NCBI RefSeq assembly: GCF_026625865.1
Contig: NZ_CP113067.1
Location: 2,542,001-2,606,000 of the forward strand
DNA length: 64,000 nt
Source of the DNA: Microbacterium sp. SL75
Lineage (GTDB): Bacteria; Actinomycetota; Actinomycetes; Actinomycetales; Microbacteriaceae
Direction of reading: 5' to 3'
The position numbers were made by a program, and so were the translations under genes. A model generated the notes under the pieces. It did not search any database, was not told where the DNA came from, and was given only the letters and a program-made list of their open reading frames with translations. This document shows positions 18,713-22,686 of this stretch, one piece after another. Position 1 is the first letter of the stretch; every line of letters begins with the position of its first letter.

Positions 18713-19096
18713 TCACGCCCGTCGCGACCGCGATGCGAGGCGGGCGATCCCGCGCCACCCCAGCAACATGACGGCGAGGGTGATCGTGGCGACGACGACG
18801 AACGCCACCGCGACCCCTTGACCGCTGAGCGCGCGAAGCACCATGCCCAGCGCGACGGTGATCGCCCACACGGGCAGCCCCGTCTTCGCGATGGCGGCGG
18901 GTCGACGCCAGGCGCGCGTCACGAGCCAGCCGACCAGCAACGCGACCACGAACGGCCAGGCTGTGGTGGCGAGTCCCGAACCGGCGGGGCCCAGCACGTC
19001 GCCGTCGTGGGTCGCCCGCCCGATCGCGGCGAAGACGACGACGAGGACGAGGTCGATGACGAGGGCGAGCACGGGGAAACGGCGCGAAGAGGACAC
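18713..19096 (-). CDS. DUF3054 membrane protein
   Basis: 127 residues with four hydrophobic helices (VLALVIDLVLVVVFAAIGR, AWPFVVALLVGWLVTRAWR, LPVWAITVALGMVLRAL, VAFVVVATITLAVMLLGWR). The DLVLVVVFAAIGRATHDG start is characteristic of DUF3054, an actinobacterial family of unknown function. I use the GTG at 19096: GGGAGC follows a GACAAT hexamer that is six bases upstream of the start. It is divergent from the VanZ-like gene, with a repeat box between them. Confidence 0.83.
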   Translation of the reverse strand: MSSSRRFPVLALVIDLVLVVVFAAIGRATHDGDVLGPAGSGLATTAWPFVVALLVGWLVTRAWRRPAAIAKTGLPVWAITVALGMVLRALSGQGVAVAFVVVATITLAVMLLGWRGIARLASRSRRA

Positions 19097-19123: not shown

Positions 19124-19140
19124 CGTATCGTCCGCGTATC
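19124..19140. promoter_or_regulatory. Direct-repeat box upstream of the VanZ-like gene
   Basis: CGTATCGTCCGCGTATC: two CGTAT half sites 11 bases apart, one helical turn. Near-identical boxes lie at 21414-21430 and 22017-22033. Ten bases after the box on the plus strand is GACATC, a weak -10 position. The site could also act on the divergent DUF3054 gene. Confidence 0.6.
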
Positions 19141-19207
19141 CCGGAGCCGAGACATCGGGGCAACACCTCGCAGGCTGGGATGGGATCTCCCGATCCTGGA
19201 GGTCCGC

Positions 19208-19645
19208 GTGTCCGATCGTCCCGTCTTCACTTCCGCTCGCGTGCTGTCGGCGGGGGCCGTGCTCGCGGCGGTGGGGGTGCTCACCCTCGCGCCCCGCGCG
19301 ATCGCGTGGCCGGCCCGCACCGTCGTCCTCGACGCCCTCGACCACCTTCCGTCGTCGTGGCGCGCGCTGATGTTCGGCGCTGGTGCCGACGTCGCCCTCA
19401 ACATCGCGTTCTTCGTCCCCCTCGGGGCGGCGCTCGCGCTGCTTCTGCCGTTGCGGTGGTCGCCGGCATCCGTTCTGCTGTGCGCTCTCGTCTCGCTCGC
19501 GGTCGAGACGCTGCAGGCGGGGATCCCCGGTCGGGTTCCGGATGCCGAGGATGTCCTGTCGAACACGATCGGCGCCGCGATCGGGACGGTCCTCGTCGTC
19601 GCGATGAGAGCTGCCGCCCGGGGCGGGCACGCGGCTCGACGCTGA
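19208..19645 (+). CDS. VanZ-like membrane protein
   Basis: 145 residues with four hydrophobic segments and the VanZ pattern: VALNIAFFVPLGAALALLLP, LVSLAVETLQAGIPGRVPDAEDVLSNTIGAAIG (family E-x-x-Q and D-x-x-x-N positions). VanZ-type proteins give low-level teicoplanin resistance in enterococci and may change wall-precursor handling. The start is GTG 19208 with TGGAGG 5 bases upstream. It ends 8 bases before the stop of the convergent histidine kinase and carries the same promoter box as that system. Confidence 0.83.
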   Translation: MSDRPVFTSARVLSAGAVLAAVGVLTLAPRAIAWPARTVVLDALDHLPSSWRALMFGAGADVALNIAFFVPLGAALALLLPLRWSPASVLLCALVSLAVETLQAGIPGRVPDAEDVLSNTIGAAIGTVLVVAMRAAARGGHAARR

Positions 19646-19653
19646 GCTCGTCG

Positions 19654-20730
19654 TCAGCGGGGCAGCCGGAGGCGGGCGTGGAGGCCGCCGCCGTCGCGGG
19701 GCCACAGCTCGAGGCGGCCACGGTGCGCGCGAGCGATCGAGGCGACGATCGCGAGTCCGAGGCCCGTGCCGTCGGCGCGCCCGCGCGTACGGCCGACCGC
19801 GCGCACGAAAGGTTCGGGGAGCGTGGCGACGAGCTCGTGCGAGAGCGTGTCGCCGCTGTTGACGACGTCGACGACCACCTCGTCGACCTCGCCGCTCACC
19901 GCGACGCGCACCCAGCCGCCCGCCACGTTGTGCACGAGCGCGTTGCGGACCAGGTTCGTCACGGCCTGGTGCACGAGCGTCTCGTCGATCCGCGCCACCC
20001 CGCCCGAGGCGCCGAGTATCGCCAGGTCGAGACCCCGGGTGTCGCCCTCGGCCTCCGCCACCACGGTCGCGACGAGATCGTCGACTCCCGTCGGTTCGAG
20101 CGAGAGCGCGTCCTCGCGTGTCGACCGGGCGAGGGCGAGCATCGCCTCGATCAGACGGATCGCGCGCTCGTTCGTGAGCTCGAGGCGGTGCAGCAGCTGG
20201 TCCACGTCTACGCCGGCGGGATTGACCCGGGCCACTTCGAGCAGCGTTCGCATCGTGGCGTGCGGTGTTCGAAGCTCGTGAGAGGCATTCGCGGCGAAGC
20301 GCCTCTGCTCGTCCAGGGTCTCTTCGACCCGCGCGAGCATCGCGTCGAAGGTGTCGGCGAGGTCCGTCAGCTCGTCACGACGCCCCGGCAACTCGACGCG
20401 GTGCGCGAGGTCGCCGTCCCGCGCCGCGCGGGCGGCATCCGCGATCCGGTGCAGCGGACGCAGCATGATCCCCGACACGATCCAGCCGCCGCCGAGGCCG
20501 AGGACCGCCAGCGCGAGCACGGCGTACCACGCGTAGCGGACGAAGACCTCGGTGAGGTCGCCGCGACCCGGCGTGAACAGACCGCTCTGGGAGTACAGGT
20601 TGCCCTCGGGGAGGAAGCGCAGCACGAGGAACCCCACCACGAAGACAGCGATCCCCACGATCACGACGAAGCCCGCGTAGCTCAGGGTGAGCTTGAGTCG
20701 TACCGAGAGCCCGGGGGCACGCTCACGCAT
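19654..20730 (-). CDS. Two-component sensor histidine kinase (VanS-like)
   Basis: 358 residues: membrane helix ~18-40, short extracellular loop (~40-62), second helix ~65-90, HAMP linker (~88-140), HisKA with phospho-acceptor H151 in NASHELRTPHA, and HATPase_c with N-box LVRNALVHNV and G-box ADGTGLGLAIVASIA. The usual HELRTPL(A/T) has His in place of the Leu. The short sensor loop fits detection of a ligand at the membrane surface. ATG 20730 overlaps the regulator stop by 8 bases. The neighbouring vanZ- and vanY-like genes suggest a cell-wall signal. Confidence 0.93.
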   Translation of the reverse strand: MRERAPGLSVRLKLTLSYAGFVVIVGIAVFVVGFLVLRFLPEGNLYSQSGLFTPGRGDLTEVFVRYAWYAVLALAVLGLGGGWIVSGIMLRPLHRIADAARAARDGDLAHRVELPGRRDELTDLADTFDAMLARVEETLDEQRRFAANASHELRTPHATMRTLLEVARVNPAGVDVDQLLHRLELTNERAIRLIEAMLALARSTREDALSLEPTGVDDLVATVVAEAEGDTRGLDLAILGASGGVARIDETLVHQAVTNLVRNALVHNVAGGWVRVAVSGEVDEVVVDVVNSGDTLSHELVATLPEPFVRAVGRTRGRADGTGLGLAIVASIARAHRGRLELWPRDGGGLHARLRLPR

Positions 20731-21391
20731 CGACCGGACCCATGCGGTAGCCGACACCCGCGACCGTCTGGATGAGCCACGGCTCGCCCAGGCGTTTGCG
20801 CAGCGTCGAGATCGTGATGCGCACGGCATTGGTGAACGGATCCGCGTTCTCGTCCCATGCGCGCTCGAGCAGGTCCTCGGCGCTGACCACGCCGCCGCCG
20901 GCGCCCATGAGGACCTGGAGCACCGCGAACTGCTTGCGGGTCAGCGAGACGTAGCGCCCGTCGCGATAGACCTCGCGGCGGAAGGGGTCGAGGCGGATGC
21001 CGTGCTGCTCGAGCACCGGCGGGAGCGAGGCCGCGGGACGACGGGCGAGGGCGTGCAGGCGCATCACCAGCTCGCGCAAAACGAACGGTTTCGTCAGGTA
21101 GTCGTCGGCACCGCTCTCGAAGCCGCTGGCCTTGTCGTCGAGCCGGTCTGCGGCCGTGAGCATGAGCACGCGCGGAGCCGCAGGCTGTGCGCTCAGGTGG
21201 CGTGCGATCTCATCGCCGTTCGGACCGGGGATGTCGCGATCGAGCACCACCACGTCGTAGGCGGTGTAGCCGAGGACCTCGAGGGCGGCGTCGCCGTCGC
21301 TGGCGATGTCGGCCGCGATCGCCTCGAGACGGAGGCCGTCGCGGATGGCCTCGGCGAGAAAGGGTTCGTCCTCGACGATCAGCACGCGCAT
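20723..21391 (-). CDS. OmpR/PhoB-type response regulator (VanR-like)
   Basis: 222 residues: receiver domain with E7/D8 acidic pair, phospho-acceptor D51 (VVVLDRDIPGPNGDE), T in LMLTAAD, K in YLTKPF; then a winged-helix effector domain (YVSLTRKQFAVLQVLMGAGGGVVSAEDLLERAWDENADPFTNAVRITISTLRKRLGEPWLIQTVAGVGYRMG). It should bind the CGTAT-repeat boxes around it, including the one 23 bases before its own start. A TACGAT -10 is six bases before the ATG, predicting a leaderless mRNA. Confidence 0.95.
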   Translation of the reverse strand: MRVLIVEDEPFLAEAIRDGLRLEAIAADIASDGDAALEVLGYTAYDVVVLDRDIPGPNGDEIARHLSAQPAAPRVLMLTAADRLDDKASGFESGADDYLTKPFVLRELVMRLHALARRPAASLPPVLEQHGIRLDPFRREVYRDGRYVSLTRKQFAVLQVLMGAGGGVVSAEDLLERAWDENADPFTNAVRITISTLRKRLGEPWLIQTVAGVGYRMGPVDA

Positions 21392-21397
21392 CCCGTC

Positions 21398-21430
21398 ATC
21401 GTAGGTGCGGGGGCGTATCGCCGACGTATG
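21398..21430 (-). promoter_or_regulatory. Promoter and repeat box of the VanRS-like genes
   Basis: The box at 21414-21430 (plus strand CGTATCGCCGACGTATG) is followed on the minus strand, after 10 bases, by TACGAT (21403-21398), and six bases later by the regulator ATG. The box therefore covers the -35 region, as expected for an OmpR-type activator. Confidence 0.6.
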
Positions 21431-21498
21431 CGCGAGCCGGAGCCCGGAGTGGGAGTCGTTCCCGCCCCCGACAACCTCGGCCTCGATAGCGTGGGGGC

Positions 21499-22002
21499 AT
21501 GGCGACCCGACTGCTCATCGTGGCCGATACGCACGTTCCCCGGAGGGCGCGCGTGCTTCCCGCGGCGGTGCGCGAAGCGGCATCCGGCGTCGATCTCATC
21601 GTGCACGCGGGTGACTGGGTGAGCGCGAGCGTGCTCGACGAACTCGAGACGCTCGGCCCCGTGCTGGGTGTGTGGGGCAACAACGACGGCGACGACCTGC
21701 GTTCGCGCCTGCCCGAGATCGCGCGCGCCGAGATCGACGGGGTGCGGGTCGCCGTCGTGCACGAGACCGGGGCGTCGCTCGGGCGCGAGAAGCGGATGGA
21801 TGCCGCATTCCCCGACGCCGACCTGCTCGTGTTCGGGCACAGCCACATCCCGTGGGATACCGTCACCCCGAACGGCCTTCGCCTTCTCAACCCGGGCTCG
21901 CCCACCGACCGCCGCCGTCAGCCCGCGTGCACCCTCATGACCGCGACCCTCTCTGCCGGCGAGATCCGCGACGTGGTGCTGCACGAGGTCTCACGCGACT
22001 GA
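21499..22002 (+). CDS. YfcE/MJ0936-type metallophosphoesterase
   Basis: A 167-residue calcineurin-like phosphodiesterase: LLIVADTHVPRR (D-x-H, though here DTH), VHAGDWV (GD), VWGNNDGDDL (GN), VVHETG and FGHSHIPW (GHSH) give the metal ligands in order. It is close to YfcE/YsnB phosphodiesterases; substrate unknown. TAGCGT lies exactly six bases before the ATG, so it probably has its own leaderless promoter and need not belong to the adjacent Van-like regulon. Confidence 0.9.
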   Translation: MATRLLIVADTHVPRRARVLPAAVREAASGVDLIVHAGDWVSASVLDELETLGPVLGVWGNNDGDDLRSRLPEIARAEIDGVRVAVVHETGASLGREKRMDAAFPDADLLVFGHSHIPWDTVTPNGLRLLNPGSPTDRRRQPACTLMTATLSAGEIRDVVLHEVSRD

Positions 22003-22016
22003 GCTATCGACTCTGG

Positions 22017-22033
22017 CGTATCGCCGTCGTATG
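22017..22033 (+). promoter_or_regulatory. Direct-repeat box upstream of the VanY-like gene
   Basis: CGTATCGCCGTCGTATG, differing at one position from the box at the regulator promoter. Ten bases further on is TACGGC (22044-22049), the same box-to-(-10) distance as at the regulator. The vanY start is 47 bases after the box. Confidence 0.65.
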
Positions 22034-22080
22034 GTCCCCGCCATACGGCCCGGCAACGCGGGCCCGGCTCGAATGGGGGC

Positions 22081-22686
22081 ATGGCATCTTCGGCATCCCG
22101 CACTCGATCCCCCTCTCGCGGCCGTATCGCATTCGTCGCGGTCGCGGTCGGTCTCGCCGTCGTCCTCACCGCGGTCGCGGCAGTGCTCGCGATGACCACG
22201 GCGTCGTCGTTGTCGGCGGGGCTGAGCGCGCACGCGCCGTTCTCGCCGACCGAGGCCGAGGGGATGATCCCCGCCGAGGCGCCGCTGACGGTCTACGACG
22301 ATCAGCACCCCGCGATGACCGGGCTCGATGGTGAGCTGCGCGATGCTCTGCGCGCGGCCCAGCGGGCCGCTGAGGTCGACGGGATCGTCTTCGACGTCAC
22401 CAGCGGGTGGCGCAGCGCCGACTACCAGCGGTGGCTGCTGGGGGATGCGATCCGCACCTACGGCTCCGAAGCGATCGCGCGACAGTACGTCGCCTCGCCC
22501 GAGGGGTCGAGCCACGTCACCGGTCACGCCGTCGACATCGGCTCGCTCGACGCGCAGCTGTGGATCATCGATCACGGACGCGAGTGGGGTCTGTGCCAGA
22601 CCTACGCCAACGAGCGGTGGCACTTCGAGAGGGCGACAGACGCCGGAGGAGAATGCCCCGCGCCGATGGCGGACGCGCGCGGGTGA
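22081..22686 (+). CDS. D-alanyl-D-alanine carboxypeptidase, VanY-like (M15)
   Basis: A 201-residue exported zinc peptidase that trims the terminal D-Ala of peptidoglycan stem peptides. An uncleaved-anchor or signal helix at ~15-40 follows a basic N-terminus. The M15B motifs are complete: TSGWRSADYQRWL, SSHVTGHAVDIGS (zinc His and Asp) and NERWHFE (catalytic Glu and zinc His). Because loss of the terminal D-Ala removes the vancomycin target, its pairing with the VanRS-like pair and the shared box argues for a wall-stress role. A GGGGG tract precedes the ATG. Confidence 0.92.
   Translation: MASSASRTRSPSRGRIAFVAVAVGLAVVLTAVAAVLAMTTASSLSAGLSAHAPFSPTEAEGMIPAEAPLTVYDDQHPAMTGLDGELRDALRAAQRAAEVDGIVFDVTSGWRSADYQRWLLGDAIRTYGSEAIARQYVASPEGSSHVTGHAVDIGSLDAQLWIIDHGREWGLCQTYANERWHFERATDAGGECPAPMADARG

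What the first reader, a model, noticed from the sequence alone, without database searches (positions are those of the whole stretch)
19124..22686. A VanRS-like regulon marked by three near-identical 17-bp boxes (vanZ-like, vanRS-like, vanY-like)
CGTATC-type half sites repeat with an 11-bp period at 19124, 21414 and 22017. They lie before a VanZ-like gene, the two-component system itself, and a VanY-like D,D-carboxypeptidase. At the regulator and vanY promoters the box is followed after exactly 10 bases by TACGAT or TACGGC; at vanZ by a weak GACATC. The box at the regulator promoter reads in the opposite orientation relative to transcription, which must be explained. VanR regulation of vanY and vanZ is known in enterococci, but there is no vanHAX here, so this looks like a minimal wall-stress circuit based on D-Ala trimming.
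Basis: partly seen in the sequence, partly recalled or inferred. Interest (0 to 1): 0.75.

Follow-up and report, generated by a model that had tools for sequence, protein, structure and literature searches.

The report
Phylum-wide VanR switch, found in Microbacterium
Three short DNA boxes in a Microbacterium genome match a control site that sits, at near-fixed spacing, in front of the vancomycin-response regulator gene and its likely target genes in many Actinobacteria; the site predicts the DNA target of the VanR regulator, which a 2021 paper called unknown.

Summary
The boxes are real. The regulator is 77% identical to Streptomyces coelicolor VanR, whose DNA target a 2021 paper calls unknown (PMC8329863). 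With up to one mismatch the box lies within 90 nt upstream of vanR in 62/64 Microbacterium relatives, 50/60 loci from other genera and 72/80 named loci, mostly at 23-24 nt, and at 0 of 23 paralogous regulators. Other copies precede VanZ, VanH, FemAB and VanY genes, with the start codon at +63/64. The orientation puzzle has an explanation: the box faces vanR, 10 bp from its -10. Target promoters add a weaker pair (ATACG-N6-CAACR), also 10 bp from their -10. Here vanR, vanY and vanZ are the likely targets; the metallophosphoesterase and DUF3054 genes are doubtful. The VanX family is absent from the genome. Best reading: VanR~P autoactivates vanRS and turns on VanY trimming plus VanZ. Binding, inducing signal and phenotype are untested.

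The parts
20723..21391 (-). vanR-type OmpR/PhoB response regulator (222 aa)
   Evidence: Response_reg + Trans_reg_C; vanR-O NCBIfam 375 bits, below its cut-off of 505; 77% identical to VanR of S. coelicolor, PDB 7lz9
19654..20730 (-). vanS-type histidine kinase; two TM segments with a short loop (read from sequence), HAMP, HisKA, HATPase; overlaps vanR
21414..21429 (-). Box 2: strong VanR box; read toward vanR it is ATACG-TCGGCG-ATACG
   Evidence: conserved upstream of vanR in relatives
21398..21403 (-). vanR -10 hexamer TACGAT, 10 bp from box 2, 6 nt before ATG 21391 (leaderless, inferred)
   Evidence: TAnnnT is the consensus at this place in 58 genus and 89 other exact-box vanR promoters
22081..22686 (+). 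vanY: M15B-type D,D-carboxypeptidase with an N-terminal hydrophobic segment (by eye) and SxHxxGxAxD and ExWH motifs
   Evidence: PF02557 42 bits, cut-off 25; motifs (motif names recalled)
22017..22032 (+). Box 3: strong VanR box of the vanY promoter
22043..22058 (+). vanY proximal half-site pair ATACG-N6-CAACG, 10 bp from the -10
   Evidence: the whole 63-nt module is found once in the genome with up to 3 mismatches allowed, here with 0
22069..22074 (+). vanY -10 (TCGAAT), 6 nt before ATG 22081 (leaderless, inferred)
19208..19645 (+). vanZ-like gene, GTG start with GGAGG upstream
   Evidence: PF04892 68 bits, cut-off 30
19124..19139 (+). Box 1: strong VanR box of the vanZ promoter
   Evidence: also in the 8 close relatives with vanZ in the fetched stretch, weak in one
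19150..19181 (+). vanZ proximal pair (AGACA-N6-CAACA, degenerate) and -10 TGGGAT in register; leader of about 20 nt inferred
21499..22002 (+). YfcE-type metallophosphoesterase between box 2 and vanY; regulation by VanR doubtful
   Evidence: in this place in 10 of 67 genus loci; box-to-start spacing varies 29-85 nt
18713..19096 (-). DUF3054 gene divergent from vanZ; regulation by VanR doubtful (box 15 nt, not 10, from its candidate -10 GACAAT)

Best explanation
The boxes are operators of the neighbouring VanR (class of S. coelicolor VanR). Each strong box is an 11-bp-period direct repeat, ATAYG-N6-ATAYG read toward vanR, bound head-to-tail by a VanR~P dimer. At vanR the box lies 10 bp upstream of the -10, the PhoB-type activating position, and gives positive autoregulation. 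At vanY and vanZ the strong box sits inverted upstream of a second, weaker pair (ATACG-N6-CAACR) that lies 10 bp from their -10. VanR~P on the strong box would help fill the weak one, so targets need more VanR~P than vanR itself. Output: VanY removes the terminal D-Ala of wall stem peptides, lowering glycopeptide targets, and VanZ acts as an accessory protein. No VanX-family protein is found, hence most likely no D-Ala-D-Lac route. Shown here: the sequences, their conservation, spacing, gene associations and absence at paralogues. Inferred: binding by VanR, activation, the two-tier threshold, leaderless start of vanR and vanY. Unknown: the signal read by VanS.
For: Chance excluded. Box within 90 nt upstream of vanR orthologues, exact / up to 1 mismatch: genus 59/67 and 65/67 (56/64 and 62/64 without the window and two loci picked because they carried the pattern), 60 loci of 14 families outside the genus 36 and 50, 80 named loci 56 and 72. 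Paralogous regulators of 50-67% identity: 0/23. Of 73 distinct exact boxes not at vanR, 53 have a start codon of an ORF of at least 90 aa at +63/64; 47 such genes outside the genus are VanZ 26, VanH 16, FemAB 2, VanY 1, ABC 1, one unassigned. Divergent from vanR: VanY 37, Exo_endo_phos (VanJ-like) 9 of 56. Proximal pair plus -10 complete at 90/106 vanR boxes with a divergent start and 51/54 stand-alone target boxes, against 10/41 vanR boxes and 5/19 other boxes with no start called. vanR-type and target-type promoters share half-site spacing and distance to the -10. In G050, where other genes separate vanS from vanR, vanS has its own box, 10 bp, TAGGCT, 6 nt, ATG. vanJ and vanH promoters of S. 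coelicolor are vancomycin-inducible (PMC9779433, passages).
Against: No binding or expression data for this regulator. 20 of 207 VanR loci lack the vanR box even with one mismatch (2 of 67, 10 of 60, 8 of 80); 12 of the 18 outside the genus still have an exact box before another gene in the locus, so autoregulation is not universal. The second half of the proximal pair (CAACR) matches the half-site at only 2-3 of 5 positions and could be a sigma-factor or other contact. In eight Microbacterium loci vanZ has the proximal pair without a strong box. The vanZ proximal pair in the window is degenerate and vanZ has a leader. A published vanH-promoter reverse primer (PMC9779433) seems to end inside the proximal pair, yet that fragment still responded to vancomycin.
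Confidence: 0.85

Rival explanations
1. The conserved element belongs to a different factor (an ECF sigma with a CAAC-type -35, or another wall-stress regulator) that happens to control van genes.
For: CAAC is among the best kept parts of the proximal element and resembles ECF -35 cores (recalled); the box has not been footprinted.
Against: Boxes go with VanR orthologues and are absent at 23 paralogues. Of 41 exact vanR boxes with no start called on the other side, 30 lack the AAC element, so the strong box occurs without it. CAAC to -10 spacing is too short for an ECF promoter pair (recalled).
Confidence: 0.07
2. Box 2 serves the divergent metallophosphoesterase gene rather than vanR.
For: In the window that gene has CAACC 10 bp before TAGCGT and a leaderless-type ATG.
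Against: Distance to vanR is constant (23 nt) in all 10 loci with this gene while distance to the phosphoesterase runs from 29 to 85 nt; the proximal pair is missing in register at box 2; loci without the gene keep the box.
Confidence: 0.05
3. The operator is real, but the circuit answers a signal other than glycopeptides (for example lipid II-binding peptides or general wall damage) and VanY serves wall maturation. This concerns the input and is compatible with the best explanation of the boxes.
For: VanS is 41-57% identical in genus loci outside the closest relatives (one segment 63%), VanR 74-85%, so inputs may differ; no VanX-family match in 117 of 119 genus genomes.
Against: S. coelicolor VanRS is reported to answer glycopeptides specifically (PMC6767563, passages), and in Nonomuraea a VanRS-like pair without vanHAX drives a VanY (PMC7148328, passages).
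Confidence: 0.4

Closest known systems
VanRS of Streptomyces coelicolor (vanRS-J-K-HAX)
   Same: VanR 77% identical with a nearly identical DNA-binding helix region; VanR controls four separate van units (PMC10345050, passages); the box is found before vanH, FemAB (vanK-like) and Exo_endo_phos (vanJ-like) genes in other actinobacteria.
   Different: No VanX-family match in the window's genome; targets here are vanY and vanZ. The S. coelicolor operator was called unknown in 2021 (PMC8329863, passages); the S. coelicolor promoters themselves were not examined here.
Dbv6/Dbv22/Dbv7 of Nonomuraea gerenzanensis (PMC7148328, passages)
   Same: A VanRS-like pair drives a VanY carboxypeptidase without vanHAX; the regulator binds upstream of vanY.
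   Different: Dbv6 did not bind its own upstream region and also represses antibiotic genes; the paper calls the pair unrelated to those of other glycopeptide clusters and the effect of dbv7 on resistance modest; no site sequence in the passages read.
Enterococcal VanR sites (PMC4405338, passages)
   Same: Repeated sites; vanA P_R has one and P_H two, parallel to one strong box at vanR and two pairs at targets; both motifs contain CGTA.
   Different: 12-bp motif (T/C)CGTANGAAA(T/A)T upstream of a -35; VanR of VanA/VanB types under 20% identical to that of S. coelicolor (PMC8329863).
PhoB/Pho-box class II promoters
   Same: 11-bp direct repeat placed 10 bp upstream of the -10 (PhoB geometry recalled, not looked up).
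   Different: Inverted strong pair upstream of a weak proximal pair; leaderless-type start codons.
CutRS (PMC12802291, passages)
   Same: OmpR-family pair of related actinobacteria.
   Different: CutR site is TAWATAAA and CutS has two conserved cysteines; this VanS has no cysteine.

Membership tests
VanR of the S. coelicolor / VanR-O type | Receiver plus winged-helix domain, close similarity to a studied member | tested here: met
VanR of the S. coelicolor / VanR-O type | NCBIfam vanR-O curated cut-off (505 bits) | tested here: not met
   375-376 bits; I therefore call it VanR-like by identity to S. coelicolor VanR, not VanR-O
vanHAX glycopeptide resistance system | VanX D-Ala-D-Ala dipeptidase | tested here: not met
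   PF01427 (Peptidase_M15; that VanX belongs to it is recalled): 0 in the own genome, 2 of 119 genus genomes; VanH and VanA not searched
VanR-dependent regulon | Shared operator at regulator and target promoters | tested here: met
VanR-dependent regulon | Regulator binds the operator and target RNA depends on it | not testable with these tools
   needs EMSA or footprint and RNA
OmpR/PhoB class II promoter | 11-bp direct repeat 10 bp from the -10 | tested here: met
   (definition recalled; the -10 elements are predicted)
VanY (peptidase M15B) D,D-carboxypeptidase | VanY domain with zinc and catalytic motifs | tested here: met
   PF02557 above cut-off; SSHVTGHAVD and ERWH
VanY (peptidase M15B) D,D-carboxypeptidase | D,D-carboxypeptidase activity | not testable with these tools
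   needs enzyme assay
CutRS | Paired extracellular cysteines in the kinase; TAWATAAA site | tested here: not met
   no cysteine in the kinase; a different site is conserved upstream of the regulator

The most novel reading that the evidence does not exclude
A rigid promoter cassette (strong inverted VanR pair, A-rich patch, weak ATACG-N6-CAACR pair, 10 bp, -10, 6-7 nt, leaderless-type start codon) is the common operator of VanR in Actinobacteria, also seen in Solirubrobacterales and one Chloroflexi bin. It has been placed, at the same spacing, before vanH, vanY, vanZ, vanK-like, vanJ-like and a few other genes, and gives a two-step response: one VanR dimer for autoactivation, two for target genes.
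Probability: 0.6. Interest if true: 0.78.

Novelty: new variant of a known kind. Interest (0 to 1): 0.7.

Why it matters
The DNA sequence recognised by S. coelicolor VanR was stated to be unknown in the 2021 structure paper (PMC8329863, passages). This work gives a specific prediction with spacing, orientation and half-site roles. It would allow regulon prediction from sequence, gives a test DNA for structural work, and shows that a VanRS-VanY module without VanX is common in Microbacterium: a VanR match at E 1e-60 or better in 67 of 119 genomes, divergent vanY at 64 of 67 VanR loci, a VanX-family match in 2 of 119 genomes. A survey of the phylum found van-like genes in 15 of 1741 Micrococcales genomes, with two vanY if I read its table column rightly (PMC8698665, passages).

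Tried and rejected
CutRS membership was considered because of the actinobacterial context and rejected. The strict pattern of the finding as a conservation test was rejected as too narrow. Extra VanR targets in the own genome: YRTATCGNNNNYRTAT with one mismatch gives 20 sites against 7 in the control; of the 17 besides the three boxes none has TAC or AAC of the proximal pair in register. The one further exact site (L114) begins 24 nt before the ATG of a gene that looks like an M13 peptidase (by eye, not scanned) and fits neither geometry. Proximal pair plus -10 with one mismatch gave 5 sites besides vanY against 3 in the control; one (L303) is in register before an ATP-grasp-like gene (name recalled), likely chance. 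The phosphoesterase and DUF3054 genes as targets: spacing not conserved or different, not claimed. S. coelicolor promoters were not among the fetched loci; a published primer (PMC9779433) whose complement reads AAAGCGCATACGG fits the A-patch plus proximal half-site but is only a lead. An expression study that searched for motifs in network modules, a VanRS one among them (PMC3224704, passages), has its motif list in a supplement that I could not open, so an earlier computed motif cannot be excluded. Paper searches on the question; in listings and the passages read I saw no such motif; the library lacks most subscription papers.

Rows dropped before counts: L108, L109 and L112 (50-66% identical paralogues) from the genus set, used instead as controls; G023 (partial) not fetched; L110 and L111 were picked because they carried the pattern and are separated in the counts; L113 has no VanR. 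Of 69 listed hits at 71% or more outside the genus I fetched 60 (left out G238, G256, G336, G339, G355, G384, G461, G466, G524). Class, named and genus sets overlap in some genomes, judged by equal contig lengths (G427 and L225, G440 and L253, G042 and L183), so the three sets are not fully independent. Identical 77-base surroundings were counted once. The one-mismatch test at paralogues used one orientation, as for the orthologues; a weight-matrix scan of both strands found at best 10.6 (L270) against a median of 28 in the genus boxes it was trained on, lowest 17.
Full report
What is there. The window lies in a 3.44-Mb genome of the genus Microbacterium (genus inferred: contig 17 of same-genus genome G042 has 87,599 bases, as has the record of Microbacterium sp. 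69-10). Around the finding lie DUF3054 (18713-19096 -), vanZ (19208-19645 +), vanS (19654-20730 -), vanR (20723-21391 -), a YfcE-type metallophosphoesterase (21499-22002 +), vanY (22081-22686 +) and a fatty-acid desaturase.

The regulator. VanR is 77% identical to S. [quoted passage not shown] The paper on that protein's structure says its recognition sequence is not yet known and presumes head-to-tail binding (PMC8329863, passages).

Conservation. I compared VanR loci from the genus (66 besides the window, two of them picked because they carried the pattern), 60 loci of 14 families outside the genus (60 of 69 listed hits at 71% or more) and 80 named loci (best 80 of 543 relatives found). Within 90 nt upstream of vanR the exact box is in 59/67, 36/60 and 56/80, and with up to one mismatch in 65/67, 50/60 and 72/80 (56/64 and 62/64 in the genus without the window and the two picked loci). 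Of these one-mismatch-or-better boxes, 60 of 65, 50 of 50 and 72 of 72 start 22-27 nt from the start codon; five genus loci have it at 39 or 54. Twenty of the 207 loci lack it; in 12 of the 18 of these outside the genus an exact box lies before another gene of the locus. Elsewhere in the same loci (about 4.09 Mb counted on both strands) there are 74 exact boxes, most of them at target promoters. None of 23 paralogous regulators has a box with up to one mismatch. Exact boxes at vanR occur, for example, in Streptomyces, Nocardia, Agromyces, Mycolicibacterium, Patulibacter, Solirubrobacter and one Chloroflexi bin.

Target promoters. Among 220 distinct exact boxes, 147 are at vanR and 73 elsewhere; 53 of the 73, and 102 of the 147 in the divergent direction, have a start codon of an open frame of at least 90 residues at 63 or 64 nt. 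Downstream genes of 47 stand-alone boxes outside the genus: VanZ 26, VanH 16 (all matching the NCBIfam VanH models), FemAB 2 (VanK-like), VanY 1, ABC transporter 1, one unassigned. Genes divergent from vanR in 56 such loci: VanY 37, endonuclease/phosphatase family (VanJ-like) 9, one each S11 carboxypeptidase, VanH-type dehydrogenase and ABC transporter, 7 unassigned. VanR control of vanJ, vanK and vanHAX is described for S. coelicolor (PMC10345050, PMC9739842, passages), so the box precedes the very kinds of gene that VanR is known to control.

Two promoter types, one geometry. Read toward vanR, the sequence is ATAYG-N6-ATAYG, 10 bp, TAnnnT, 6-7 nt, ATG. Read toward the targets it is the same strong pair inverted, an A-rich patch, ATACG-N6-CAACR, 10 bp, TnnnnT, 6-7 nt, ATG. 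Aligned on the -10 the two types agree in the first half-site, in half-site spacing and in the distance to the -10, while the second half-site is degenerate in targets. The proximal pair and -10 are complete at 90/106 vanR boxes with a divergent start and at 51/54 stand-alone target boxes. With no start called they are complete in 10/41 vanR boxes, 9 of these 10 having a start codon at 62-63 that opens only a short or cut frame, and in 5/19 other boxes. In G050 a NarL-type pair and another gene (families judged by eye) separate vanR from vanS, and vanS there has its own box, 10 bp, TAGGCT, 6 nt, ATG.

What happened in this clade. In 64 of 67 genus loci vanY is divergent from vanR, and where nothing lies between them usually one box sits between the two genes. 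In 10 loci, the window and its closest relatives, the metallophosphoesterase gene lies between them; vanR keeps its box at 23 nt and vanY has its own promoter, with a box scoring 11 or more in 9 of 10 and a one-mismatch box in the tenth. The distance from the box to the phosphoesterase varies from 29 to 85 nt. vanZ has a box in the window and in the 8 relatives with vanZ in the fetched stretch, one of them weak. In eight other Microbacterium loci vanZ has the proximal pair alone. In the window's genome the complete 63-nt module is found once, before vanY, with up to three mismatches allowed.

Mechanism. Most likely VanS phosphorylates VanR; VanR~P binds the strong box and activates vanRS, and at vanY and vanZ it also fills the proximal pair next to RNA polymerase. 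VanY, with intact motifs and an N-terminal hydrophobic segment, would trim D-Ala from stem peptides. Binding, activation, threshold and enzyme activity are inferred. The signal is unknown: VanS is 41-57% identical (one segment 63%) in genus loci outside the closest relatives, where VanR is 74-85% identical.

Comparison. A VanRS-like pair driving VanY without vanHAX is known in Nonomuraea, with a modest effect of that VanY on resistance (PMC7148328, passages), and vanYRS arrangements are listed in several actinobacterial orders (PMC8698665, passages). The new part is the operator, its geometry and its reach. Enterococcal VanR sites are different 12-bp repeats but show a one-site/two-site split between the vanA regulator and resistance promoters (PMC4405338, passages).

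Limits. All evidence is sequence comparison; S. coelicolor itself was not examined, the genome sets partly overlap, -10 elements are predicted, and an earlier computed motif in a supplement (PMC3224704) could not be read.

Noticed in passing
L053 1939-1985 (G050); L111 (G140): vanS is separated from vanR by about 2.6 kb (in G050 a NarL-type two-component pair and another gene, by eye) and has its own VanR box; in L053 read to the base, 10 bp from a TAGGCT -10.
   Followed up: yes
L054, L056, L057, L059, L060, L062, L063, L064: vanZ promoters with the nearly invariant ATACGCTCCCGCAACAT pair but no strong upstream box; a target type that may respond differently.
   Followed up: partly
L159, L160, L163, L169, L191, L193, L206, L229, L231, L236, L245, L254: No vanR box, but an exact box before another gene of the locus, vanZ-type in most: autoregulation may have been lost while the target operator stayed.
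   Followed up: partly
L114 1501-1516 (own genome C1:1066166): A fourth exact box 24 nt before the ATG of a gene that looks like an M13 peptidase (not scanned); fits neither promoter geometry.
   Followed up: partly
L303 (own genome C1:911266): Proximal pair with one mismatch, -10 and ATG in register before a 498-aa ATP-grasp-like gene (name recalled).
   Followed up: partly
target promoters outside the genus: CGTATCGAAAA (second half-site plus A patch) resembles the enterococcal VanR consensus (T/C)CGTANGAAA(T/A)T apart from one extra base; could point to a common ancestral site.
   Followed up: no
window 21499-22002: A YfcE-type metallophosphoesterase lies in the vanR-vanY intergenic region only in the window and its closest relatives among the loci seen; its role is unclear.
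   Followed up: partly
L138 2245, L209, L241: Boxes also lie before a beta-lactamase-like serine hydrolase and near a MurF-like gene (both by eye) and before an ABC transporter (Pfam), suggesting further VanR targets in other genera.
   Followed up: partly
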